Part shown: positions 514 through 40,039 of the stretch, piece by piece
Layout: every line of letters begins with the position of its first letter
How positions within the stretch are numbered: the first letter of the stretch is position 1
Program-made: the position numbers and the translations under genes
Notes under the pieces: model-generated
The model's input: the letters and a program-made list of their open reading frames with translations, nothing else
What the model was told of the DNA's origin: nothing
Database searches by the model: none
NCBI GenBank assembly: GCA_002224055.1
Contig: AZLU01000087.1
Span: 93,081 to 157,080 of the forward strand
Direction of reading: 5' to 3'
Length of the DNA: 64,000 nucleotides
From: Pezizomycotina sp. ARF18
Taxonomy: Eukaryota; Ascomycota

Positions 514-1576
514 TCAAATTATTGACCTTGCTGAAACAATGTTTTTCGCTTGTTTTTGTTTAAGACTCACCAAGAGTTGATGAATCAAGTACTGAGGGTC
601 ATAGATATCGATAGCCCTCTGTTTGGCCCAATTGTCAATGGCATCGAAGTTCCTACAGTCGTGCTGGACTTCAAAGTTCGGCCACGGAGCCTGGAAGTCG
701 GGGAGCCAGCTGTAGGTGACGAGCGTGATGTCGGCTTTGCACATAATGACCTGGCGGAGCATGTCTATGCAGTGGTCTAAGGGTAAAAAGTCGCCAGAGT
801 CAGTGAAAGGAGTTCTACGTTCGGAAGAGAAGAATAATGAACCAATGAACTAACCGACGTGCTCTTGATTCGGTACGTTCGTCTTGCCCATAGAGTAATA
901 CTCAGGATGTACGAAGTGACGAATATATTTTAGACAGTGGAGCTGGTGGTAAACATCCAGCGTCGCGAGGTAATCGCCTGATCCATCGGAGAGAGGTACG
1001 GATGTCCTGTTGGCTTTCCTGAGAACATCCCCAGATACCCGTATATTGGAATCTAATTGTTAAAACAGATATTAGCTTACAATGCTATGAAAATTCAGAA
1101 CTCAGATAAACACCAGAACTCACTCGCAAACAGCTTTCCCATTTCGCGTCGATCTCTTCGCTCGGTGGTCTTTATAATCGTTCGTGGTGTTGATTTTGGC
1201 GGAGATAAGTTTCCTGTCGTATTTACGCCTCTCTGGCCGGTGCTATCGGGGTTTCAAAAAGTTAGTATAACGAGCCAAAACAAAACACCAATTAAGAACC
1301 ACATACAATACAGAAGCTTCGAATTCTCATCGTTATTCCCAAGTCTGTCTAAGGCGAAGAGAAAGATGACCGTATACACCATGAATATAGTAAGGTGTAT
1401 AATAGTCGCCGCGCTGACGATAGGAAACCATCTCCTGGCACGACTTGAGGGTGATCGAGAGAGTCTTCCTCAAGATTGACCTCCGAATAATGACCCTTCT
1501 CCAGAAGAGCATCCGTAGAAGCGTCTTCCCTCTCGAAGGAAGTTCTCCTCGGTGAAGCTGATGAAGTGGACGACAT
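514..1576 (-). CDS. UstYa-like (DUF3328) oxidase
   Basis: This is a member of the UstYa/DUF3328 family, membrane-anchored proteins known to install oxidative macrocycles in fungal dikaritin RiPPs (ustiloxin, phomopsin, asperipin). The start ATG is at 1576. The N-terminus is acidic and cytosolic-looking, followed by a basic RRW and a single hydrophobic segment rich in Ile/Phe/Leu around 1340-1420. Next come an APAREA-like motif and PPSEEIDAKW around 1130-1230. Both family signature motifs are present: HQLHC (934-948) and H-V-D-H-C followed by IDMLRQ, the latter split by an intron at 777-854. A second intron is at 1053-1123. The C-terminal part has the usual CKADITLVTYSW and PWPNFEVQHDCRNFDAI stretches. 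Apparent frameshifts lie near 1450, 1225 and 1160, all next to short homopolymers. The gene is divergent from the repeat precursor at 3241, which supports a joint RiPP role. Family assignment is firm; the substrate is inferred. Confidence 0.93.
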
Positions 1577-3240
1577 AATTGTGAATTGTAAAGATGAAAG
1601 ATGAAAGCAAAAAAGTCTGGGGGGCTAGCTGACTTCGTGAAATTTTCTGGCCCGTGTATTGTTTTTATCAACCAGCTTCTGAGCGATTGCAAACAAGTGA
1701 ATCGTTCACCAATGCACGTAAATGATTAAGAATCCTAGCTCTCGCAATTCCCCAAATATCGGGGAAGGAGCTTCATTCCTGGAGCACTTCGGTCCTTGTC
1801 TTGGAAAAAAACAAAAACTACTCATTGCTTTTTTGTTACAATAAGCTGGGCATCCCCGGTCCTTGTCATGATGACATGGAACAGGCTTATGTCGCCACGA
1901 TTTCTACGACAGCGAAGGTGAACCGTTTATTCGGAAGGTGTCTCGATTAACTCTTACAGGGAACTTTGTAGAACTCAGTCTCAACAATATGATTCGTCCC
2001 TTGACGAAGGCGTCTAAAAACGCCTGTGGACCGCACCAGAACAAAAAGTTCGCCACAGCCATCTCGGAACGGACATGGGTACGAGGCTCCGAGCACCCTG
2101 ACATAAAAATCGTGTATACGACATAATCCTTTGGAATTTATTTACTTTTTATTTTTGTCTTTAATATTTTTAATATTTTCTATTTTTCCAAATTCTATCA
2201 CCGTCCATTTCTTAGCGTCCTAACGTCCTGGAAATTTCCGCAAACCCGATTTCGCTGCAGGTGGCAGTGATTTGTACGACCATTTCCGTAAAACGGATCC
2301 CACTATAGCCATACCCTGCATATAACGATATTCGCACCTTATTCGACCATATAGGCTTCAGGTTTGGTAATTCGGAAACATCATTTACTACCTTCTCCAG
2401 ATCTGTCTTACTCAAAAAATGTGTAAAACGGGATAGTGGCAAGTCCCTTCGGGTTTGCCGCTATAGAGTCCAACTGGACGCAAGGATGAGAACGGCAAAC
2501 GTTGAGGAGGAAGCCTCGCGGAACTCCTATTGAACAACGCGATCTTATCTTACCTTCTATTCCTTGCCAACTTCGCCGTCTTCAGTCCCTGGCTCTAGTT
2601 TCCTTAGAACATACTTTCCTCCTATTGTTTTTGCTTACTCTAGTTTTTTTTTTTTTTTTTTGTTAATGTATTCATGTTACAACAGATTCCGCAAAATCAA
2701 TGTCGTCCTATCACTCATAGTGACTTATCTCTGAAAAAATTAGTCTTACCGTAAACCATGGCCATTCTTCTACGGACGTTTTTCCAAATTCTACCAGCGA
2801 AGAGCGAAATAACGAAACTTCGCTCCCGTACCATCTTACATCGCCCGAATGGAAGGAGCTTTGTATCTCCTAGTAACTTTGGCTCTGGAGATTTAGACAC
2901 AAGGGTAGGAAACACAGGCTCAAGGTGCACGATTGCACGTGGAACCCATACCCAGAAGACAGCAATTGGGAAACCTCCAAGCTGGGAATGTAGATAGACA
3001 AAGGATATCTCAATTCGATCCTTCTGAAGAGCAGATCACTTCTATAAGTACGACCCTTCGCGTCCGAAATATCCTCCATCTGATCATCATCACACAACTC
3101 ATCTTCTCATCTCTACATCATTAACTCACTCTTCTCTTCTCATTCATATCTTGCCCTCCATTGATACAAAGGTCCTAATCTTTATCTCCTCACTCATTCA
3201 TTCTTTATAATATATCATTTGAAATCCCCACATCTTCACA
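1577..3240. promoter_or_regulatory. divergent intergenic region with CT-rich promoter
   Basis: This 1.66-kb region separates the UstYa-like gene from the repeat precursor and must carry both promoters. The last 130 bases before the precursor are strongly pyrimidine-rich (about 3075-3200), as in many highly expressed fungal genes. An AT-rich TATAATATAT lies at 3206-3215, only about 27 bases from the ATG, so it is more likely leader than TATA box. A T-tract lies near 2645-2661. Short open frames here show no family features and are left out. Confidence 0.5.
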
Positions 3241-4497
3241 ATGCATTACACTACCATCGCCTCCATCGCCCTTGTGGCCGCCACCGCCTCCGCTGCCGCT
3301 ATCCCCAAGCCGGTCGCAACGGACGCCGACTCCGCCCTCGGAGACTACGGTACTTTCCAGGGAAAGCGCGATGTAGCTAAGGAGACTCAGGACGCCGATT
3401 CTGCCCTTGGTAACTACGGCGTTTTCTACGGCAAGAGGTCTGAGACCGAAGACGGCGACTCCGCTCTCGGTAACTACGGAACCTTCACTGGTAAGCGCGA
3501 TACCACGGACGCCGATGCGACGCCGCTCTAGGCGACTACGGTGTCTTCGTTGGCAAGGCTAAGCGCGATACCGAGGATGCCGACTCCGCCCTTGGCAACT
3601 ACGGTACCTTCCAGGGCAAGCGTGACACTGAGGATGCTGACTCCGCCTTGGGCAACTATGGCACTTTCAGTGGCAAGGCTAAGCGCGATGCCGAGGATGC
3701 CGACTCCGCCCTGGGCAACTACGGAACCTTCACTGGTAAGCGCGATACCACGGACGCCGATGCCGACGCCGCTCTAGGCGACTATGGTGTCTTCGTTGGC
3801 AAGCGCCACGAGAGGATGGCGACTCTGCCCTTGGAAACTACGGAACCTTCACTGGCAAGGCTAAACGCTCTGAGGAGGACGCTGACTCCGCTCTCGGAAA
3901 CTACGGTACCTTCACCGGCGAATCCCCCGACGATGCCCTCGGTAACTACGGTACCTTCCACGGTAAGCGTGCTGAGGCTCCTAAGAAGGAGACCGAAGAT
4001 GCCGATTCCGCCCTCGGTAACTACGGTGTTTTCTACGGAAAGCGCTCTGAGACTGAGGACGCCGATTCCGCCCTTGGAAACTACGGTACCTTCAACGGTA
4101 AGCGCTCCGAGACCGAAGACGGTGACTCTGCCCTCGGTAACTACGGTACCTTCCACGGTAAGCGTGCTGAGGCCCCAAAGAAGGAGACCGAAGATGCGAT
4201 TCCGCTCTGGGCAACTACGGTGTTTTCTACGGAAAGCGCTCTGAGACTGAGGATGCCGATTCCGCTCTCGGAAATTACGGTACCTTCAACGGTAAGCGCT
4301 CCGAGACCGAAGACGGTGACTCTGCCCTCGGTAACTATGGTACCTTCAACGGCAAGCGCGCTGAGGCTCCAAAGAAGGAGACCGAAGATGCCGATTCCGC
4401 TCTGGGCAACTACGGCGTCTTCTACGGAAAGCGCTCTGAGACTGAGGATGCCGATTCCGCTCTCGGAAATTACGGTACTTTCACCGGCAAGGCTTAA
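3241..4497 (+). CDS. Kex2-processed repeat RiPP precursor, dikaritin type
   Basis: This encodes a secreted repeat precursor. The start at 3241 is followed by a signal peptide of about 20 residues (Ala/Val-rich, ending near ASAAAIPKP). I count 19 repeats of 13-18 residues of the type DADSALGNYGVFYGKR, nearly all ending in Lys-Arg (a Kex2 site); some end GKAKR and one ends GESPD. The Tyr-Gly-[Thr/Val]-Phe-x-Gly core is conserved while x varies (Q, Y, T, V, S, H, N). Linkers are acidic (SETE, DTTD, AEAPKKETE). There is no intron. Three single-base losses relative to sister repeats, near 3515, 3812 and 4196, shift the frame, but they sum to three so the last repeat is back in the starting frame and ends at TAA 4495-4497. 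With the UstYa-like neighbour this fits a dikaritin-class RiPP precursor. A Kex2-processed repeat peptide with another role, such as a pheromone-like signal, is the alternative. Confidence 0.93.
3322..4497 (+). repeat. 19-unit coding repeat array of the RiPP precursor
   Basis: The array consists of core-plus-recognition units of 39-54 bases separated by short linkers. The first part contains units ending YGTFQ, YGVFY, YGTFT, YGVFV, YGTFQ, YGTFS, YGTFT, YGVFV, YGTFT and YGTFT. The second part (from about 3930) is a higher-order repeat of 195 bases (65 codons): three units in a fixed order with a long AEAPKKETE linker, present three times. The anchor codon GCC recurs at 3935, 4130 and 4324, the last spacing being one base short. 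This points to recent block duplication. Confidence 0.9.
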
Positions 4498-5098
4498 GTG
4501 ATACGAGTGGTTATATTTAATATTTAGAGATCGAAGATCAGAGCTTATATTCCATATTTTCCTACGGTGCATCTTGTTTTTCTTTTTATAAATATTTTTT
4601 TTCTATTTCTTACACATGTACATCTAATGCTGCATTTTCGAGTTCGCTAGTTCCTTGAGTTAATAGATTGCTTTTTAAACTACTCCTCCTCATGTGTCTT
4701 CCAACTCGTGAAAGTGATATGTTTATACTACAGTCGTCATCTTGAGTATTTTGGAAACCAGCCACAACATTATAAAAACAATTTTTCAATTTAATGTTTC
4801 CTGAACTTTAAGCTAGCGCAGGTTAATGATGAAGCTGCAGCTGAGAGATTGTAGAAAACTTTGAATGATTGAATATTGTTAAGGTTCCTGCAGGCTTATT
4901 GACGATCTAGAACAACTCTTGGTTAAATCGAACATCTACTCAATTTAAAATAACCTCGAGACATTCTAGAACATCAAACGATTATGAGCGATTAAAAACG
5001 TATCATGCCACGCAGATATACCTTCACATCACACTACTTTATCAATATTCGAATAGAGAACATCGTCATAAGGTCTCAGAATTAATATCAAACGGGAA
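4498..5098. other. intergenic
   Basis: This is the 3' region of the repeat precursor and the promoter of the next gene. It begins with T/A-rich sequence (4500-4620) suitable for polyadenylation. I see no coding pattern in it. Confidence 0.5.
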
Positions 5099-7012
5099 AT
5101 GCAGCATTTCAGTATTACTTTACTTGTAGCACTAAGTGCTCTCAATCCAGCGTCCGTTTATGCTACGGATGTCAAAGACGCGAAGGCCGTTAATTCACAA
5201 CCGGTAAAAGCGCCCGTTAAGAATAATGTCACACCTGTTCCAGCAACTAGTCCCGGCAAGGTCAACGGCTCGGTTGTTCCAGTAGCGCAAAGCATCGAAT
5301 CGCTAGGCACTCCTGAGACTAAATCGGGTAATATTCTCGGGGACCTGACGATAGAGGTCCTGCCATTCTTTCGGAAGCTTCTGATCGATATTGGGATCTT
5401 GGATCGGATCGGATCACGGCCGGAAGATCATCTCAAACTAGATCCTAGCGAGGTGAATAAGTCGACAAAGCCAGAAGGCAAACCGGAGAAGACGGGCAAA
5501 TCAGCGAAGCCAGAGGACAAGCCTGCAGCTGCAAAACCGGACGCGGAGCTTGATGTCACCGCCGTTGCCGCTACTTTGGCCGAGATCAGGAAGCATATCG
5601 ACGAACGGTCTAACGACCTAAACCGTCTGTGGCTAGACACCGTAACTTCCGCCCGGGCTGCTACGCGCAATGCTACGCGAAAAAGCGGGAGTGACGATAA
5701 ACTCCGGGAACAATTCCACGCTGGCATCGCAAATATCACAACAGCCGTCGACAACAGCCTCGCCCATGCGAGGAAGGTTTTTATCCCTTTCAAGAAATGC
5801 CAACTCTGCGCGGGACTTATTGATTTAGGTAAGTCGCAAAGTACTGATTAAGATATAGTCATAGCTTTTATAAGACTCGGAAGACTAATCCTAACGTTTA
5901 TAGGGACCCGTAATGGCACGAATAAAATAGAGCATATTCCTCCTATCATCGAGATCGAAAACACCGCCAGTAACATCACGGCTAAGGCCAATAATTCTTC
6001 TATTCACGCCCTTCGGGTGCCGGGTACTATATTGAACGGAACCACAACGGCAATGAAACCAAGGCAGTTGTCCCTAATGTAGGCGTTGTTAAGAATACTA
6101 ACACATCTATTGCTGCCGGTCGCGATATTGTCGGCAATTCAATCACGCTCCCGACAAACTCCTCTGTGCCTAACAATGGAACTGGACCTGCGGTAAACAC
6201 GGCACAAACTAACCTCATCACTACCAACTCTTCGCCCAGCACGGGAATCCAGCCAGGTTTAGCAAATGCAGTTGTCGATAATAGCGCTCCCATCGCGTCG
6301 GCTGGTATTGCAAACCTGGTGCACAGTGGCATCCCCGGCGCCGAGGCTTCCGCTGGTGCAAGTACAGGAACCCAGCCAAGCGTAGCAAATGCAGTTGTTA
6401 ATAACAACGCTCCCGTTGCCTCGGCTGGTATTCCGAACGTAGTCCAAAGCGGTAGCGCAGGCGTCGAATCTTCTGCTGGTGCATCTCCCCTAAATGATTA
6501 CTCGGTCGGAGGCGCGGCCCAGGCGGCCGCCGCCGCTCCTACTAATTTCAATAGCAACACCAACAACGCCACTAGCTCAGCGCCTAGAGCAGTCAACGAT
6601 AACAAACGGGAGGACCGGCTACCGCCACATATAGCGCTCCGGTAGTTCGGGTACCCAAGGTGCTATTCCGGGAACCAATACCGGATCTATTAGCACCTCC
6701 GGCGGTGTCGGCGGTAACGCTAATAATATTTCAGCTGTCACCGGGTCCAATACTCCCGGCGGTATTGCCTTTCCTAATAACACCTCGGAGGTTTCTCAGA
6801 ATTCCACCGTCCCAACTGGCCTTCCCTCCAACACCAATGATTCAACAGCCATCCTCGCAGTTAACGGGACGCAAAATTCAACAACCTTTCAAGCAAAACT
6901 CCATAATATGGAAGCAAAGATCTCACATGACATTGCTTATCGCATCGCGACCGAATTCCACAAGATCGAGGACATGTTTTCCAATTCTTCCAAATCAAAT
7001 GCGACCTCGTAA
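5099..7012 (+). CDS. secreted Asn/Thr/Gly-rich protein, unknown function
   Basis: The start at 5099 gives a clear signal peptide (MQHFSITLLVALSALNPASVYA). Next is a Lys/Pro/Glu-rich stretch with KPEGKPEK-like repeats, then a helical section that ends in KCQLCAG. An intron runs 5829-5904 (GTAAGT to TATAG). The second exon encodes a long Asn/Ala/Gly/Ser-rich region with many N-glycosylation sequons (NGT, NNT, NSS) and two copies of a block containing ANAVV, SAGI and GIQP/GTQP (about 6240-6340 and 6360-6460). It ends in FSNSSKSNATS and TAA 7010-7012. Frame shifts occur near 6030 and 6635. I do not recognise the family; a cell-surface or apoplastic protein is likely. It follows the RiPP precursor in the same direction, but a role in that pathway is unsupported. 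Confidence 0.75.
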
Positions 7013-17502: not shown

Positions 17503-19779
17503 TTACAGGACGTTCACCCGACACACCACTTTTGACGAGGGTTTGTGCTTTTTTACTGAGACTGCGAGGCCCCTAGTAGTCGCAGCTCCAGTTGATGAGG
17601 AGTCTAATGGTGGCATATCGTTTACGGCTGATTTCTCATCGCCCAGGTGCAGAGTGTTGATGGAAGACTCCAAGGTACTTGGCGCTCGAAGCTCCTCACA
17701 TCTGATGGCCATTCGACAAAGGAACTTGGTGTATAGTATCTCGTTCTTCTCCTCAAAGATTGACACGAGAATAGCAGCGGTACTCCGAAAAGGTGTAATG
17801 GCACCCCCAACGATTAGTGCAAGTCTCATCCCCGCAAGAGGAGCAGACTGGCTCCACAACGCCATTCCATCTTCGTCTCCGAAAAAGCTTGCGTTGTACT
17901 GACGTTGATCGATGGTGTCGACAAAGCCGAAGCCTTCTCTGAGTTCTGGCTTGAGATATTCAAGGAAGATGAAACCCGGAAACTTGACCATCAGGCCCGA
18001 GCTATTCAACAAGGCCGGGCTTTGGTCGTTAATATTTCCGGTCATTTTGCCAAACGAAGAGAGCGCCCATCGCCAGCCATCTTGCTGGATCCTCGGCCCG
18101 CGGAGGAATATTATCCCGGCTGGGAACACTCTAAGCTGCGCCAAAAGATTCTTCATCCTATCTCGTGGATGGAGGTCGGACAGCTCCATAATGTCTAGTT
18201 CCAGCAGCGTGCCGGCGCAGATAGTCTCGTCGGACTTCCTGCTAGTCGAGCGCCACTGGAAGGCCTTCCATGCCTGGGCGACCAACATAGCTTTTGTCCG
18301 AACTTGCCATTCATCTTTCCAGCGGAGATCCGAGACGATCCTGAACGCCTCGAGCTGGATAGTCTGCGGTAGTCGAACTTCATCGCGACTAACGCGTTAA
18401 TAATGTCGAACGTGTCTCCCTCGAATTGCACGTGCAAATTCTGCGCTTGGACACCTTCCTGGAGCGTCCACAACCGCTTCATCCAGCTCGAACATCCGAT
18501 CCTAATCAGGAGTTCCTCCGCGGGGAGGTCTATGGGAGTTTGCTGCAGTTCTCCATCTAGGATAAGGACATCGCGCGCGTCCTTGTAGACTTGAACCATT
18601 GTTCTTATGGCGCGTTTCCGCAGCTGCCCTTCCAGCGGTACGCACAGGGTGTCTATCCAGATGCAAACGGAGTCATCTGAGTCATCTACGGCTCCTGGTT
18701 TAAGGGCGAAAATGTCCTCCATAGTGGTCGTCGTCCCCGGCATATCGAACCAGTGGTCTGTTTCTTGCCATCGTTCTGCGGACGTATAATTTCGAGACGA
18801 GCCCCTTCAATCGCAGAAGTTGACAGGTAGGAAGCGAGTTTGCTTCCGCGTTTCCTAGACCGTCAGCCCAAACATGGGATATAGCTACGTAGCCTATTCT
18901 CACTCCCCCACCCCCGATAACATCGATCGGGGTGTATCCGAACCCTCCGGCACCGCTATTTGATGATCGGCACCCCTCCGGCCGCGACGATGGCTTTGAT
19001 CTTCTCGGGATCCGGCGACATATGCTTACACTGGCAGTCTTCCGTTACGTGCTTGGTCTCGTAGGTTGCTGCATCTATCTGGTCCGCGACACATTCTTCC
19101 ATCGTGCACCTCTGATGGTTATCTCTGACGCCTTTACGGCGGAAGCAGCTTACGAAGAACATCCCCGGCGGGCCTACGATGTCCCTCAGCCTGGCGATCG
19201 AGTTGGGACACCAACCAGCGTTCAACATCCGCGAAACAGTGAGTGCGCTGGTACCCAATGAAACAGCTCCTTAGGCCCATACGGATTGAGCATGTCGATC
19301 GTTAAATCAAGGTAAGGATTAGATTTAGGAGCCTTATGAATGTGATTTTTCGCGCAGTCTAGCGTGTATCCTAGGACCATGATAGAAAGAGAGGCTTCGG
19401 GGCTTAACGGCAACACTTGCTTCGCGTCCAAGTCTCCTCCCCACGAGGCGAAAGCCATGAGCGAGCTTACCCCACCAAACATGCGTTTACTTTGGACCAT
19501 TCCTCTTTTTGTTGTTCTCGGAGAGGGCGTCGAAGCGTTTCTTCCAGTCCGTTATGTAGCGGGGAGCTCACTCGTATTTACGATCCGGTCGTTATTCTCT
19601 CCCTCGTGGACAAAATCCTCCATCTTAATGGGAATGCCCAAGACTTCGTGGAGCATCCCAAATAAAGCCACGCCTGGAGAATGATGCCGTACGGTCCGCG
19701 GGTGTTCGCTGAAATCACCACGGAGCAGCCGCTTCTTGTCCCAGCTCTCCTTTCTGGTATTCCTGGAATCCGTTGCCAT
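17503..19779 (-). CDS. heterokaryon incompatibility (HET) domain protein
   Basis: The ATG at 19779 begins [16 protein letters not shown] and the stop is TAA at 17503-17505. The HET domain is clear: [15 protein letters not shown] (about 18860-18900), followed by [40 protein letters not shown] and [14 protein letters not shown] (18440-18690). The N-terminal part carries a Cys/His-rich section (CFRRKGV, EDCQCKH). HET domains act in allorecognition and programmed cell death between incompatible hyphae. The C-terminal 260 codons are coding-like with no named domain. Frame shifts occur near 18370, 18955, 19250 and 19560, while the protein signal continues across each, so assembly error is likely but decay cannot be excluded. 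It lies in a group with ankyrin, NACHT and F-box genes. Confidence 0.88.
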
Positions 19780-20512
19780 CGTAGTCCTCCTGGGAGATAT
19801 ATCGCACCTTCAACGGCGGAAATGCCGGGTCTGAGACTGTGAAAGATGGTCCATGATCAAATTATAGTATTAAGGTAACTATTTGAAAATATTCGGTAGT
19901 ATTGGAGTTAACTGCACGTAGACTAATAGCACAGAGTATAGGATATGTAAACCGATGAGAAGGAGTTTCTGGATCCAGATTCTAACAGGAGCCCACCATA
20001 GAATACTATCTACCCCTCACCGACCCTAATTATCTATGACTATTTGTCTCGTCTTGCGAACACGTGCGCAGAGCCTCCTAGAATTCGCAAACTGGCGTGG
20101 GGTACGTGGAAGCCCAGCCAGCGTCCTATTCTATCAGCCGCATGGGGGATGATCCACTATATACCGGCGTGGTATATAATGCAATGTGACCCTCATATTC
20201 GCCCATTTCCGCGCACTCCCTGTAGACCCTCCAAAATCACTAGGCAACCGCTTTCTAGATATTTGTGAACGTTTCGAGCCCTTCAGCATTTATTTTCCAC
20301 TTCGGATTCGCAATCTATACATAGCGTTGCCTGTAGGCCTGTTGAGCCAACCCCGCAATCCTACGGACGACTTTTGGTAAGGGATCTAGACGATTTACAT
20401 CAGTATATGGGTCATCTCGTTTTCCCGATATCAACTTGCAACATCAACTGACGTTTAAGTAGACCTAGGTTGTAGGCTCACTGCTTTTCAAAAAAAAAAA
20501 AAAAAAAAAAGG
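19780..20512. other. intergenic between divergent HET and ankyrin genes
   Basis: This is the shared upstream region. It contains no supported gene. An uninterrupted run of about 21 A (20490-20510) lies immediately before the ATG at 20513. Confidence 0.5.
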
Positions 20513-21895
20513 ATGGGTCACGACCACCCGGACCTGGTGGCCGCCGTAACGAGTCTCCGAGATTACGCTTCACAGCTCAAAGAGGTCATCATGGGATACA
20601 TCGCTGCAACCAGAGTACGAAGGGCGACCAGTTCATGTTTGACTTATCCGTCCTCGGCACCGTCTTGGAATTGCTCCTCCGGTCCGTCAACGACACGGAC
20701 TCGGAAATCGAGAAGCCGGATCAGATACCCGTTCTCTCTTCGGTAATCGAAAATTTTGCTGTCGCGCTACAAGGCCTGCGAGAAAAACCTTGCGATAACG
20801 CATGGAGACGAAGGTCAGGCGCCTCGATCCCAGCAAAGTCTCCGATGGCCTTTGGACGACTTTGAAAGCCAGGAGGCGAACCGAAAACTGCGCAGATGTG
20901 TTACAACCTGTCTCTTGTCGATGTTTATCACGCTAGGGTGGGTTCTCAATTGACAAATTTTTTTAATTTTTTCTTCATCTTACACCTTTGAAAAACCAAA
21001 AGGGAAAAGAAAAAAAAGAAAAGAAAAAACTGTGCTGATGATCATGGAAATTCCACCCTCGGCTCGACTAGCGCGATACTAAGGGTGGGATCTCAAAGCG
21101 AGGACGCTTACGCTCGAGACGATAATCCCTTGTACGCGGCGGCGTTGGATGGGACGAAACCGCGGTAAGGCTGTGTTCGGGGATCGGAGCGAACATGAAT
21201 GTGCATGGGGTCTGTACGGTAACGCTCTACAGGCCGCCTCTGTCAACGGCACGAAGCGATAGTCCGGCTGCTCTTGGATTTAGGCTCCGAGGTTAACGCT
21301 GCTGGGGACACTATGCCACCGCCCTTAACGGTGCAGCGACCAGGGGCCACGGACCGGTGGTGCAGCTGCTACTGGAAAACGGCGCGGACGTTAACGCCAA
21401 GGTCGGCCGCTTTGGCAATGCACTATGTAGCGCCGTCGCGAGAGGCCACGTGGAGATCGTGGAGTCTCTGCTTGCGCATAAGGCGGACGTCAACGCCAAG
21501 GTCGGAAATTACAGCGGCGGGATTCCTCTCAGCCTTGACGAGATGGACGATGCCGACATACCAGTGATGCTCATGACGGACCCTGACTACAATTCACACA
21601 CTGCTCTCTACCTGGCGGCTGCGTATGGAGATGAAGCGATGATCGAGTTATTGGTTGATGCCGGCGCGGATGTAAATGGCCGCTGCGGTTCTTTGGCAAC
21701 GTGCTTCAGGCCGCGACAGCCGGCGGGCATGAGGGCGCGGCTAAGCTATTGGTAGAGAGAGGGGCCGACGTCCACGCGATAGGGGGCTTTTATGGTACGG
21801 CGATTGCTGCCGCATATAATAATGGGCACCAGTCGCTGGCGAAATTCATGGAGAGCATTATGAAGGAAGATCCGGAAAGTAAAAACAACACGTAA
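20513..21895 (+). CDS. ankyrin-repeat protein with helical N-terminal domain
   Basis: The N-terminal part starts at 20513 (MGHDHPDLVAAVTSLRDYAS) and continues in shifted frame as FDLSVLGTVLELLLRSVND, a helical domain like those that precede fungal STAND or ankyrin proteins. T/A-rich sequence around 20955-21030 may be an intron. From about 21220 to 21890 there are at least six ankyrin repeats with typical turns (VQLLLENGADVNAKVG, GHVEIVESLLAHKADVNAK, DEAMIELLVDAGADVNG, GHEGAAKLLVERGADVHA). The stop TAA is at 21893-21895. Frame shifts occur near 20615, 20785, 21170-21260, 21345 and 21690. Ankyrin arrays mediate protein binding; here they probably act in recognition, given the HET and NACHT neighbours. 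It could be a partial STAND gene that has lost its ATPase module. Confidence 0.82.
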
Positions 21896-22559
21896 ATACA
21901 ATAACATTACTAGTGTAGTAGCTCTGTACTTAGTAGCCTATCTTCATTGTATGGAATATATCAATTGCTTTGCAGTTCCCTTATGATATAGATTAAATTT
22001 TGAAACATTAGAGGATAGCTTTTCTGAAGATTAACTCTTACATCTGTACCGTACCTAAACATGCTGCAGGGAGCCGGGAGGGGGGACTCTATATTAGGCT
22101 ACTTCTTTACTTTCGTGTCGCTAGCACTAGTAACTTGAAAGTACCTGGCGTTATATCGTTGGCGCATCGCAATCGGGATTCACCCGCTGTTCTCCCTGAC
22201 TTCCATGATTCCCTACTTGGTAGCTATAAAATTTGGTCAGCGCTAACCTTGGGATTTTGTAAATTTTAGCTGGAGGTAAAAACGGCCTCTCGGAGAGAGA
22301 GAGAGAGTACATATGAACTCTGAGGCAGTAGGCGTTGAGCCGGGACTTTGCTCCTGGAAAAAATACCGGATGTTTCTGGAAGTCGTTCAAACAAACCCTG
22401 GACAGCACTACAACAACCGGGGGATCCGTATGGGAGCAGCCTTAGAACTTGTAAATGTGTGAATATAGAACGGAACTGCGCGATAAACAGGAACGTGACC
22501 AATCGATAAAATATTGGGTTCATGCTTACCACCTCCTGAGCTCCGGATAGCTGTCTAGG
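21896..22559. other. intergenic, short GA repeat
   Basis: A GA dinucleotide run lies at about 22293-22308. Minus-strand frames at 22151-22532 could be a tail of the F-box/LRR gene, but I cannot link them to it. Confidence 0.35.
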
Positions 22560-23500
22560 GACGCGCCCGTGAAATCTTTATTTTACAACATCGGGGCAGC
22601 TCGAACTTCCGCAAATCGCTCATGTTGACTACACAACTGTTCAGGTCGCCCCAGGTGATCCAGCTGCTTCTCTCTGCGTCAATACTACTCGCCGGTACAT
22701 CTCCTTCATATCCAGAGGCATCGCAGTCTTCCAGCGAAAGCTGCTCCAGCGTTGCCCCGTGTGCTCAGAGGAATGCGAGAATATCTCACCCGGTGACCAA
22801 CCCTTTTAGACGTATATTTCCATAATGCGCAGGTCCTCAAAGAAGAAATCGATCAGCGGCCCGGGCCATCTTTGACGGCTAACCCGCCGATGTCGAGTAT
22901 AATTCTTCCAGCGAAGTGAGGGAGGACGGCCATGAACGCGCTAGACTTGGAAAACATTCAAAAAGCTCTAGCGGACTTTCTCTGCATACGTCGAGGCATG
23001 ATGTGTGGCCGATGCACATAGACCACCTTTGGTCTGCCGGCACAACGGATACTTTCAGTGATCTTAACCGCTGCAGGAACGTATAATCCTTTTGCTGCCC
23101 TGGCGAAGGTGACGGACTATCGGCTCTCGCAGATACTTCCGAAATTTCTAGGTGTGTGATGTTACCTATCAAGCCTCTCGGGTCCTGCGGGAGCGACGGT
23201 ATCTCGGGAACGCCTACTAGCCCCACGTGCATTTTACAGACACCGGGAGCGCAGACCGTGCACCAGGACGCCATCGCTGGTGGCTAGTAGCGACGGTCCG
23301 GGTTGACCAGTGCGACGGTTGCTTTTGTTCGGCTCGGAAAATAGCGGCGGAGGTATGCGGGCGTATCTGCAAAGGAACGTAGGGTGCGACAGGTGGAGCG
23401 GAGGATCTTGTAGTGGCTTGCCGCGCCTGTGGCGGCGGTGAGAAGGTGGGATTGACGTTTCGAAAGCGGTTCACGTTATAATATCTTCCTCGGTGGTGAA
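22560..23500 (-). pseudogene. F-box/LRR-like protein, fragmentary
   Basis: The minus strand reads, over shifted frames, as a small fungal F-box/LRR-like protein. Near 23330-23440 there is a helical stretch with LRSTCRTLRSFADTPAYLRR, as in the F-box C-terminal helix. Then come a leucine-rich segment with GNITHLEIS and LQRLRSLKVSVVP (22980-23190), PLIDFFFEDLRIMEIYV (about 22840), and finally GATLEQLSLEDCDASGYEG with MSDLRKFELP (22590-22760), the closing LRR-like motif of these proteins. A TAG near 23290 and several shifts break it. The start was not found; it begins just downstream of the NACHT gene stop at 23476. Assignment rests on pattern only. Confidence 0.5.
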
Positions 23501-26500
23501 GGATGCAGTCTGCCAGATGACGTGACCGAAAAGTATCGAGACCCGGTCAATACGAGAGCGGTTCCAAGGTCGAACTGTTTCCGCTTTAGTGAATCGGGTA
23601 TGTTCCCCAGAACTTCCGGGTGGCCGTAAAATAATGCCCTCTGAAAAAGAACTTTAGAGGCGACTTCAAGTTCAGACCTCTCGGATGAGTCGGGAACGAT
23701 GAAAAGGCCTTTCACGGGGAAAGTCTCGAAGAGAAGGTCCACTGTTTTCTTTGCATCCGTTCCAGATCGCCAATCGAGCTCGAGAGTTATAATAGCTCCG
23801 CCAACTCCTGGTCCCATTCGGTTGAATACTGCCGGGTCCTTGACCTGGCTCCGTATTTCATTAATAGCCGTATCATCGCTGTATCGTTCAATATGACCGC
23901 TATGGCTAGGGGGGTGCACGAGGATTGCAGATAGTTTACTGATGATGAACCAATCGGCAAACCGTTCCAGGATTTTACTGCCACGAAAACTTCCGCTGCT
24001 CGCGCAGCAGCCTCTCTGCGACCGAAAGGTTGCCATATTTCACGCACAGGATAGTACGGTCACCCCATCACGGTCTGCAGGCAACGCGTTTACCCGCTTT
24101 CTTGTGACGAGAAATTTGTTGCCGCTTGTTTGTGTCGGTTCCCACAGAAAATGGTCTTCCTTGTATCGGAACACTAAGTAGGTAATCTATGACTTTGAGG
24201 GGCTGGTTGGCTCCGCACGCCGTTCCTCCACCCGTTATCACGCCATGCCCTCCGTCCTCGAACGTCCGGCAGCCGATGGAGACAAGATGCCACCTCATAT
24301 GCAGGTTCCCAGATTTAGCTGCGGCTTGACAAGCGGTGAGTTTGATCCTCTCGTTGGGTATATTTCCGCCAACTTCCAGGACCGCGGCGACAGAACTCCC
24401 CCCCTTGGGCCAGGGATTGGGATCGAGATTAGGCCTGAAAAAGTTCTCGTAACATCAAAAGATCGCGTCTACAACGTTTGTATTTCCGTTCGCTGCCGCG
24501 AGAACAAGCGAGACCGACAGTTCATTGAGCAAACTTTGGCCGTCATCGGGCGGGGGATGTACCCGCGTGGGCACTCGGAAAGCAAGTTTCGAATGGCCTC
24601 GACATTCCCGCTCTTAGCTGCCGCTTCGAGCGGCATGTATCCGCGGACACTCCTACCGATTGTTACATCCGCGCCGGCCTCCAGCAGCCAGCTCACGGCT
24701 TCGTGATCCCATGAAGCGCGGCGGACTGCAAAACGGTAAATCCGTTTTGAAGCGATGGTGCTCCATTTAGTTGGCTCACTGGGACGACGTCGTTATCGAT
24801 AAGGTGCCGGACGAGGTGGTGTTGCTCTCCGAGGGAAGCTGCCTGCAACGCCTTCAACCTCTGTCTTCCTCGAAGACTTGCTCGAAGCGCCAGTTTGTGG
24901 GGCAAGCGTTCTCGTCCGAAAGCAAAACCTCGACGATCGACTCGGCGCCATAAAGGCACGATAGCGCTGGAAGCGTAAGGAGACGTTCCTCGGATGCGCC
25001 GGTGGAGAATGTTTCCTCCACCGTAGCATATTCCGGGAGCTCAGCAAAACACAATCTGAAAAGGGCCTGGTGTCGTTCGCGAGCGCCATTCCAGTATCGT
25101 GTTGTCGTGAACGAGCCGGAATGTCTCGCAGGCTGAACCTCCTCCCACGGGCGTTTGAGTACAGCCGTGCAGTCTCTCGAAGACGGCGTTCATAAACTGC
25201 ATCCAGGTTTGGTCGCGCTCTCCACACGGCCGCAAGCCTTTGCAATGGAACAGCCAATTCTGTCTGACGTATGGTAATAGTGTGTAGGTCGCTGCTAGAG
25301 CGTTTAATCGCTCTTCGTCCTCATCCTCCTGGTCTGATACCTCTAGAGCCTCTTCCTCCTCTCGGGCGCTCTTTGTCCTCTTTTCGAAGCTGCCTTTGAA
25401 GGTGAGCTCCAGGCGTTTAGTAGTGTAGCAGAGACCTTTAGAATACCTGCCATAGATTTCAGAGTACACTGAGAGACCTGCTTTACCATCTCCCCCAGAT
25501 CCACGGGTTGCCGACGCTGAATTCCCGTGGTATTGTTTCGATTTACTAAAGCGGTGCTCAAATTGATGAGCCGAGATATGTCAAAGAGAAACGCGCGAGA
25601 TCCAGATTTCCTTCCCTCAAGTCGATGTTTATGGTCGTCCCTGCACGTTAAGAGAAACTCGCGAACGTGTAATGGGAAAGCTGGATCGTATCGAACGCGC
25701 GTGGTGGAAGACCAAGGAGCCACAGTTCTGCAGTATCTCTTCTCATCTATCGGAATTCGCCTTACCGAGCCGGAGTCACCGAACGGCCTCTGAGAGCTCT
25801 GATAGTGATAATAGCCTCCGCGCGCCGATTATCCACGTAAAAATCTTTTCGCGACTGCTATGTTGTGATGCTTGCGAAGCTTTGCGATGATCCTTTCAAA
25901 GATTTCGTTGATGCCTTCGGATAGTGATTCCAGGATATCTTGGATCGACTGCAGGTCGTTCTCCTCGACGCGTTCGTTCAGAAGGAGATTGGCGAGAATA
26001 AACCTTTTAATATTTACTGGTCAGAAACCTATAAGATAAATAGTAAACAGACATGACGTAATAGGAACACTTACATGCCATTTGCGCGTCTTAGGACTCC
26101 AGTGCATATTGAATCCAATATTCTTTTCGTCCAATCCGACGAAGTGATCGTGCCTTTTCAACTCTAGTTCGACCCTTTGTTTTATGTCGGGTTCGTTCCT
26201 CTCCGGGTAATCTTAAGACACAAGAAGTCCTGAGCGAGAACCTTCTCAATGTCAACCTCAGCTCGACTAGAGATTACAAGCTTAAGCTTTACGCCGCCTG
26301 CCTGGCTGATGGACTTGAATATGTTCGTCATAATCGATAGGATAGACTTCCGGTCTTTAGGGCCCGCTTCATCGATACCGTCCAGAATGATGTAGACTGT
26401 CCCCGAACCCTTCCCAATTAGCGTGTCCAAGAAACCCGCGCTGGCTTTCACATCTGGTCTGGTGAGCTTGTCTTTCGAAGCGTACAATGCGGCGTTTCTT

Positions 26501-28001
26501 CTTCTAGGTTCGGGTATTTCCTCCCCAAGATCGTCAGCAGCTGCTTCACGAGACTGTTGACGATTGTTTCCGGAGTGAGTGACGCTTCGTCCTGGTAACT
26601 GCAGAAGAAGTAGATCATGTACGTATCGCGGCCGCGCTTTTCCCAAAGGTAATCGAGCAATCCGCCATGAGCATCGATTTCCCGCTACCGGCTGCGGTTG
26701 GGCCGACTATCAGTCAGTCTCACGACACTCCTTAGAAAATTGTATTTCGTTGCGGCCGAGTACTTACGAATGCCTGTGCACCAAAGCCTGCCTTCCTCGC
26801 TTCGCTTGTTCCACTCTTGAAATTCATCAGATGCGGTGACCCATCCTGCCTTGCTTTCCTCTTGCCTGTGCAGGAGATCGTTCAAGAAAACAGAGTAGTC
26901 GTAGCCGCACACCTTCTCGAGCAGATTTTCCATCTCTGATCTGTGCACAATCCAGAAGTGTAAGCATAAATAGCAATTCTCTATGACGTTGCCGCGGTTT
27001 TAATATCCGAATTTTAAGGACGTGGTAATTTACCTTTGAGCCGGGCATTCTCTTGGAGCCTCCAATTATCGGCCTTAGTGTGATGGAGGACTTCGAAGCT
27101 CATATGGTTTCTCTGCTCGTCTCTGAACAGCGCGAACTCCTGCCACGCTCTGAGTTTAGTTTCGCTTCCGCGTAGGCGATCTGTAGAGATACCAGATCCT
27201 GTTGCTGTGTGAGGGATTCCTCGATGTCTTCAAAGTCTTTCTTCAAATCCTTCCACAGCGTTTTGACAAACTTTTTGAACTCTGTGTCGGGTCAGATTGA
27301 TCAGCTCGGAGACAGAAATTGGACATGTTTATAAGGGATTGGTTGACCTACGCGACTTTCTGTTGAAGACAATTACCGATTTGCAAAAATTCACGACGTG
27401 ACTGTAGAATATGGATAGTGCATCCTGTAACTCAGCGCTGCTAAGATACGGTTTTTCTAAATTCTCGTATATGGGACACAGATTCCCGTGCACTAGGAAC
27501 ATGGAGGAGAGCTTATCCACGTAGCTTACAAAATTGTATGCTGCCTGTCATAGGTGGAGTAATGTTAATCTCGAGAATATTATGACCGTAATCTAAACAA
27601 TTCGGTATAGAGTAATTGAATACCAGGAGAGCAAACTTCGCCGCACCCAAACAATACCCGAAACTAGACGATACTACTGAAGCCTTGCATCGCCGTCAGA
27701 AAGAGCATCGCCCTTTTGCTGAACTTTATCGCCTTTGGGTTTCCGACATTGTTCAGTTCCGCGCGAGTTTCGCGACCTCGGTGGCGGCTGGAGAGCCTGA
27801 TTGCGGGAGGTTTAGCTTCTCCTCCGGACTCAACGCCTCTTCGAATACCATGCCCGCGTGTAAAAGCTGTGCTTTCCCGTCGCTATTGAAAACGAAACGG
27901 TGTTAACTGGGGTTCATCTTGAAGTGATCTGTAGTAAAGGAATCGCAAGTATCCTCACCTAGACATGGCTCGGTAACCGGCCCTGGCACGTTAATGTTCA
28001 T
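23476..28001 (-). CDS. STAND NTPase (NLR-like): N-terminal domain, NACHT, ankyrin repeats
   Basis: This is a large fungal NLR-like protein read across several frame shifts. The N-terminal part (about 27350-27850) has AIKFSKRAMLFLTAMQ, a hydrophobic AAKFALLV and ELQDALSIFYSHVVNFCKSV, which match the helical domain that often precedes NACHT modules. The Walker A motif GPTAAGSGKS is at about 26674-26704. The NACHT region continues with LDYLWEKRGRDTYMIYFF and the Walker B motif VYIILDGIDEAGPKDRKS (26350-26400). LKLVISSRAEVDIEKVL is the sensor-like strand. The section at 24470-24700 has ankyrin-type turns (WLLEAGADVTIG, LEAAAKSGNVEAIRNLL), and 23900-24000 has TPLAIAVILNDTAMIRLLMKYGA. The stop is at 23476-23478. 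The start is uncertain: ATG at 28001 (MNINVPGPV) or 28109. Such proteins sense non-self or damage and trigger cell death. An intron near 26000-26080 is probable. Confidence 0.85.

Positions 28002-39166: not shown

Positions 39167-40039
<873 letters not shown>

What the first reader, a model, noticed from the sequence alone, without database searches (positions are those of the whole stretch)
514..4497. Minimal dikaritin-type RiPP locus: UstYa-like oxidase divergent from a 19-repeat Kex2 precursor
Seen directly: a signal peptide, 19 repeats bounded by Lys-Arg with a conserved Tyr-Gly-[Thr/Val]-Phe-x-Gly core, and a divergent DUF3328 gene with both HxxHC motifs. Known: ustiloxin, phomopsin and asperipin pathways use this architecture, with UstYa proteins cyclising a Tyr- or Phe-containing core. 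Inferred: this locus makes a family of macrocyclic peptides whose core differs from the ustiloxin, phomopsin and asperipin cores I know. No tyrosinase, methyltransferase or peptidase gene is evident in the window, so the pathway may be very small or continue to the left.
Basis: partly seen in the sequence, partly recalled or inferred. Interest (0 to 1): 0.93.

Follow-up and report, generated by a model that had tools for sequence, protein, structure and literature searches.

The report
Fungal repeat-peptide gene with peptide-cyclising oxidases
A fungus carries a gene encoding 19 near-identical short peptides beside three oxidase genes of the kind that tie such peptides into rings; the arrangement is a known and common fungal one, but this peptide sequence was not found in the searches made here.

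Summary
Best read as a dikaritin-type RiPP cluster: a Kex2-processed repeat protein plus UstYa (DUF3328/PF11807) oxidases. All 19 Y-G-[T/V]-F-x-G cores are present and match nowhere else in the window. Corrections: (1) the cores lie in three reading frames (four blocks), so there is no single open frame; an HSP70-family gene in the same assembly is as frame-broken, so sequencing error is likelier than a dead gene. (2) 17 of 19 cores are followed by Lys-Arg. (3) Two more UstYa genes lie just left of the window, so it is not a one-oxidase locus. Relatives of the window's UstYa and of the third UstYa carry consecutive locus tags in Diplocarpon mali, so the pair looks conserved. No tyrosinase, P450 or S41-peptidase match lies on the contig. 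No homologous precursor and no printed copy of the core was found, within limited searches. Repeat precursors with UstYa neighbours are common (1758 of 7878 in a published survey), so this is a new member of a known kind with an apparently unreported core. Cyclisation, and the Tyr-to-Thr/Val link I think likeliest, are inferred.

The parts
3241..4497 (+). Kex2-processed repeat precursor, 19 cores; as assembled in four frame blocks (about 3241-3531, 3495-3800, 3818-4199, 4171-4497)
3241..3300 (+). signal-peptide-like N-terminus (hydrophobic, Ala-rich), end approximate
   Evidence: read from sequence; no predictor run
3343..4488 (+). 19 cores [N/D]YG[T/V]FxG: YGTFTG 5, YGVFYG 4, YGTFNG 3, YGTFQG 2, YGVFVG 2, YGTFHG 2, YGTFSG 1
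514..1576 (-). UstYa-1, UstYa/DUF3328 oxidase gene, divergent from the precursor; frame-broken in its N-terminal half
934..948 (-). first HxxHC motif (HQLHC)
777..854 (-). 78-base GT-AG intron; splicing it forms the second HxxHC motif (HVDHC)

Best explanation
A dikaritin-type RiPP cluster. The precursor enters the secretory pathway by its signal peptide. Kex2 cuts after Lys-Arg and releases about 17 peptides of the form (acidic/Ala linker)-A-L-G-[N/D]-Y-G-[T/V]-F-x-G. UstYa oxidases (three genes here) then oxidise the conserved Tyr-Gly-[Thr/Val]-Phe, most likely joining the Tyr phenol oxygen to the beta-carbon of the residue two places on (Thr/Val), as in the Tyr-Ile ether ring of phomopsin, or else to Phe; trimming then gives a family of small cyclic peptides that differ at x. 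Shown: gene anatomy, repeats, motifs, three UstYa genes, one UstYa pair that looks conserved. Inferred: processing, cyclisation, site of the bond, secretion, and that the gene is intact in the living fungus.
For: 19 of 19 cores keep Y, G, F, G and have T or V two places after Y, while codons vary mostly at third positions: pairwise differences 266, 183, 791 at positions 1, 2, 3, and in each of the four frame blocks synonymous codon differences exceed the others, so the peptide and not the DNA is conserved. UstYa Pfam hits over cut-off in 2 pieces of UstYa-1, 1 piece of UstYa-2 and 1 of UstYa-3; both HxxHC motifs conserved in all 11 aligned rows (UstYa-1 part, UstYa-3 and 9 of 44 hits). UstYa-1 relative JHW43_001292 and UstYa-3 relative JHW43_001293 are consecutive tags in Diplocarpon mali; the two relatives in Leptodontidium lie on contigs of the same listed length; these are the only 2 named species in both hit lists. 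In a survey of fungi, 1758 of 7878 such precursors have DUF3328 genes nearby, the count peaking at the next position, and 65.6% of the repeats in those 1758 contain Tyr (PMC7329392 section 7). UstYa-type enzymes are needed for the Tyr-ether links of ustiloxin, phomopsin and asperipin-2a (passages of PMC6514808).
Against: As assembled, neither precursor nor UstYa-1 is one open frame. No precursor homologue: 0 of 6953 candidates at E 0.01, so conservation of the precursor with the UstYa pair is untested. No tyrosinase on the contig, although ustiloxin and phomopsin need one; the four listed asperipin-2a genes include none. The two UstYa relatives' adjacency is read from tags and contig lengths only. 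No expression or mass data.
Confidence: 0.8

Rival explanations
1. A decayed cluster: precursor and UstYa-1 are pseudogenes with real frame shifts.
For: Three frame breaks in 1257 bases of the precursor and several frame changes in UstYa-1 and UstYa-2, read by eye.
Against: An HSP70-family gene at C49:53036-54818 reads in 7 successive pieces with 6 frame changes in 1783 bases; model positions run on from piece to piece but for one gap of 11 positions over 31 bases, too short for an intron. Chaperonin genes are also matched in pieces, there without separating introns from breaks. The precursor's rate (1 per about 420 bases) is no higher. Repeats downstream of every break keep their peptide sequence. 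UstYa-3 shows no break (by eye).
Confidence: 0.12
2. A linear signalling or pheromone-like repeat peptide whose UstYa neighbours are coincidental.
For: Kex2 repeat precursors include alpha-pheromones; a Pleosporales pheromone motif PYG[L/M]P[I/V]G is loosely similar (PMC6339444 passage).
Against: Pheromone-type precursors are, with three exceptions, not accompanied by DUF3328 genes (PMC7329392 abstract); here three UstYa genes lie within about 8 kb of the precursor's start; the Leotiomycetes pheromone type carries two conserved Cys, absent from these cores.
Confidence: 0.06
3. A repetitive secreted cell-wall or surface protein that is cut but not modified.
For: A cleaved repeat protein with a role in hyphal wall properties exists (Rep1 of Ustilago maydis, PMC6339444 passage).
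Against: Strict Y-G-[T/V]-F-x-G in 19 of 19 and three UstYa neighbours fit a modified core better.
Confidence: 0.05

Closest known systems
Ustiloxin B cluster (ustA, ustYa/ustYb, ustQ)
   Same: signal peptide, many (16) Kex2-bounded repeats, two UstYa homologues beside the precursor; Tyr with a beta-branched residue two places on (YAIG)
   Different: core Y-G-[T/V]-F-x-G; no tyrosinase, P450 or S41-peptidase match on this contig; methyltransferase and flavin enzymes not searched
Asperipin-2a cluster (aprA, aprY, aprT, aprR)
   Same: small cluster, no tyrosinase among its four listed genes, Tyr-containing core
   Different: FYYTGY core, one UstYa gene; here three UstYa genes; a reductase was not searched for and no transporter was seen in a weak search
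Phomopsin cluster
   Same: several UstYa genes (five), Kex2 repeats, Tyr-Ile ether ring
   Different: requires a tyrosinase; EDYxI-type core
Kex2-processed repeat protein with DUF3328 neighbour (class of the survey PMC7329392)
   Same: same architecture: repeats, Kex2 sites, DUF3328 gene in the next position
   Different: which of its 838 types it would join could not be checked (sequence logos and supplements not available here)

Membership tests
dikaritin-type RiPP cluster | precursor with N-terminal signal peptide | tested here: inconclusive
   N-terminus at 3241 read by eye as signal-peptide-like; no predictor run
dikaritin-type RiPP cluster | repeated cores bounded by Kex2 sites | tested here: met
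   19 cores, 17 followed by KR or KAKR; not in one frame as assembled
dikaritin-type RiPP cluster | neighbouring UstYa/DUF3328 gene with two HxxHC motifs | tested here: met
   PF11807 over cut-off; both motifs in UstYa-1 and UstYa-3; UstYa-2 shows the second, its first lies across a frame change (by eye). The motif criterion is from PMC12048977 passages
dikaritin-type RiPP cluster | Tyr in the core (usual, not universal) | tested here: met
   19 of 19; 65.6% of repeats in DUF3328-accompanied precursors
dikaritin-type RiPP cluster | product cyclised by UstYa | not testable with these tools
   needs gene removal and mass spectrometry
ustiloxin/phomopsin subtype | tyrosinase gene in the cluster | tested here: not met
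   18 tyrosinase matches in the assembly, 0 on contig C87
ustiloxin/phomopsin subtype | S41 peptidase gene | tested here: not met
   1 weak match in the assembly, on C321
asperipin subtype | reductase and transporter beside precursor | tested here: inconclusive
   reductase not searched; MFS search scored 9 of 127 candidates, none on C87

The most novel reading that the evidence does not exclude
A tyrosinase-free dikaritin pathway in which three UstYa oxidases alone turn a Y-G-[T/V]-F-x-G core into a cyclic peptide with a Tyr-O-to-Cbeta(Thr/Val) ring like that of ustiloxin and phomopsin, possibly with a second change at Phe, giving seven variants from one precursor.
Probability: 0.3. Interest if true: 0.55.

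Novelty: new member of a known kind. Interest (0 to 1): 0.33.

Why it matters
If the core is cyclised it adds a peptide scaffold to a class of which a 2022 review counted only five reported members (PMC10512285, passage), and a cluster with three UstYa genes and no linked tyrosinase would be a test of which steps UstYa proteins can do alone. The class itself and the way of finding it are established.

Tried and rejected
Precursor homologues: a 253-residue open stretch (window 3740-4498, residues 23-157 scored) gave 0 hits of 6953 candidates at E 0.01; candidates for a repeat protein are limited by length and shared words, and only this piece was searched, so this is weak evidence of absence.

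Introns as the cause of the precursor's frame breaks: a GT-AG pair can be drawn over the first break, but nearly the same stretch is read through in frame in a second copy, so I rejected it (sequence, by eye). No splice prediction was run.

Looser DNA pattern for the Y-G-T-F-x-G-K core: 16 places in the assembly, 12 here and 4 single ones elsewhere; the control (pattern reversed) gave 10, so single places mean nothing; only the cluster of 12 does.

Solved structures: the profile of 11 UstYa rows gave one match at E 0.033, to an unrelated protein. Structure prediction was not run. Neighbour ORFs: 9 of 10 without a Pfam hit, one LRR match below cut-off. P0036 was fetched but left out of the alignment.

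Literature: six core strings (five literal, one written with x), 0 papers, main texts of 5.39 million open-licence papers only; supplements and figures were not searched. Six short core strings are absent from the text of PMC7329392 and two of them, with one more, from PMC12048977. Papers seen: PMC7329392 abstract, sections 6 and 7 and passages; PMC6339444 section 10 and passages; PMC12048977, PMC10512285, PMC6514808, PMC9632046, PMC6941272 passages; all others only as search listings.

Full report
What is there. The window is bases 93081-157080 of contig C87 (157,080 bases) of a 46.4 Mb, 408-contig assembly. On the + strand, 3241-4497 encodes a signal-peptide-like start and 19 copies of A-L-G-[N/D]-Y-G-[T/V]-F-x-G, set in acidic, Ala-containing linkers. 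The motif [ND]YG[TV]FxG occurs 19 times in the window's six frames, all in this stretch, and a composite repeat query matched 7 stretches in the assembly, all at this locus. A looser DNA pattern found 16 places, 12 here and 4 single ones elsewhere, against 10 for the reversed control pattern. 14 cores are followed by KR, 3 by KAKR, 2 by neither.

Frame breaks. The cores lie in frames 1 (3 cores), 0 (5), 2 (6) and 1 (5). So the finding's '19-repeat precursor' is not a single open frame in this assembly. As a control I looked at HSP70: one HSP70-family gene at C49:53036-54818 is matched in 7 successive pieces over model positions 5-597, with 6 frame changes in 1783 bases; the positions run on from piece to piece but for one gap of 11 over 31 bases. 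Chaperonin genes are also matched in pieces, though there introns were not separated from breaks. A conserved housekeeping-type gene is thus broken at least as often as the precursor (3 in 1257 bases), so sequencing error is the likelier cause; real frame shifts are not excluded. Pairwise codon differences among cores are mostly at third positions (266, 183, 791) and synonymous changes exceed the others in all four blocks (13/7, 34/21, 39/18, 43/14). Repeats are related by duplication, so these counts show constraint but are not independent events.

The oxidases. UstYa-1 (514-1576, -) is divergent from the precursor; the two start codons are 1.66 kb apart. Its exon pieces hit PF11807 at 48 and 81 bits. 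HQLHC is at 948-934; a 78-base GT-AG intron (854-777) interrupts the second motif, HVDHC. Its N-terminal part changes frame in ways not all of which introns explain; at least one change, near 1165, has no room for an intron (by eye). Left of the window, on the same strand, lie UstYa-2 (C87 about 91991-91004, several frame changes by eye) and UstYa-3 (89443-88675, two exons, no break seen), with PF11807 at 47.5 and 43.7 bits. A fourth UstYa match lies on another contig (C96). The histidines and cysteines of both motifs (H36, H39, C40; H65, H68, C69) are invariant in all 11 rows aligned: the UstYa-1 part, UstYa-3 and 9 of the 44 hits; UstYa-2 was not aligned.

Relatives. UstYa-1's best hits are Leptodontidium sp. 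BKA61DRAFT_485707 (63% identity), Diplocarpon mali JHW43_001292 (61%) and Penicillium digitatum (57%) (22 proteins). UstYa-3's include Phlyctema, Oculimacula, D. mali JHW43_001293 and D. rosae, at 37-39% identity (22 proteins). Two named species are in both lists. In D. mali the tags are consecutive; in both species the two proteins come from contigs with the same listed length (302,658 and 2,668,938). I take this as a conserved UstYa pair, inferred from tags and lengths because fungal contigs cannot be read here. By recall several of these fungi are Helotiales, which suggests the source is one too; this was not tested.

What is missing. No match on C87 for tyrosinase (18 in the assembly), S41 peptidase (1) or P450 (66); the tool calls such counts lower bounds for large families. 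MFS scored only 9 of 127 candidates, so it says little. Methyltransferases, reductases and regulators were not searched.

Mechanism. Kex2 release and UstYa oxidation of the Tyr-containing core is the model for this class (section 7 of PMC7329392, passages of PMC6514808). Ustiloxin's core is YAIG, and phomopsin has a 13-membered ring formed by an ether between Tyr and Ile; that the Ile is two places after the Tyr in both rings is recalled. Here the residue two places after Tyr is always Thr or Val, so the same link is possible. That it is made is my inference, at about 0.4 given that the peptide is cyclised at all.

Comparison and novelty. In the published survey 1758 of 7878 Kex2 repeat proteins had DUF3328 genes nearby; Venturia inaequalis alone was given nine dikaritin clusters (PMC9632046 passage). 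The architecture is therefore ordinary. The core was not found: 0 papers for six strings, 0 protein homologues of the piece searched. PMC6339444 reports a core DADAATxYV[A/V]D (section 10), whose DADA-type start resembles the DADSALG here, but the rest differs. I rate it a new member of a known kind.

Noticed in passing
whole assembly, e.g. G000:C49:53036-54818: Frequent frame breaks even in an HSP70-family gene: the assembly looks indel-rich, so any 'pseudogene' call in this window needs caution.
   Followed up: partly
window 5101-7009: Secreted-looking low-complexity protein(s), with a 123-base duplication at 6244-6483 and no Pfam hit in 3 ORFs scanned.
   Followed up: partly
window 18198-26706: HET domain (18198-18806, -), ankyrin repeats (21297-21752, +) and an NPHP3_N match (26185-26706, -): possibly incompatibility-type genes.
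   Followed up: partly
window 39576-39744: Array of about 42 TATT units.
   Followed up: no
G000:C87:86023-87824: Pro-kumamolisin activation domain (86023-86745), followed by two more frames, one with a subtilase match below cut-off and one without a hit; probably a secreted protease gene, in several frames, just left of UstYa-3.
   Followed up: partly
G000:C96:141603-141797: A fourth UstYa match on another contig, which also bears tyrosinase pieces at 3355-4123, 137 kb away; not searched for a precursor.
   Followed up: no
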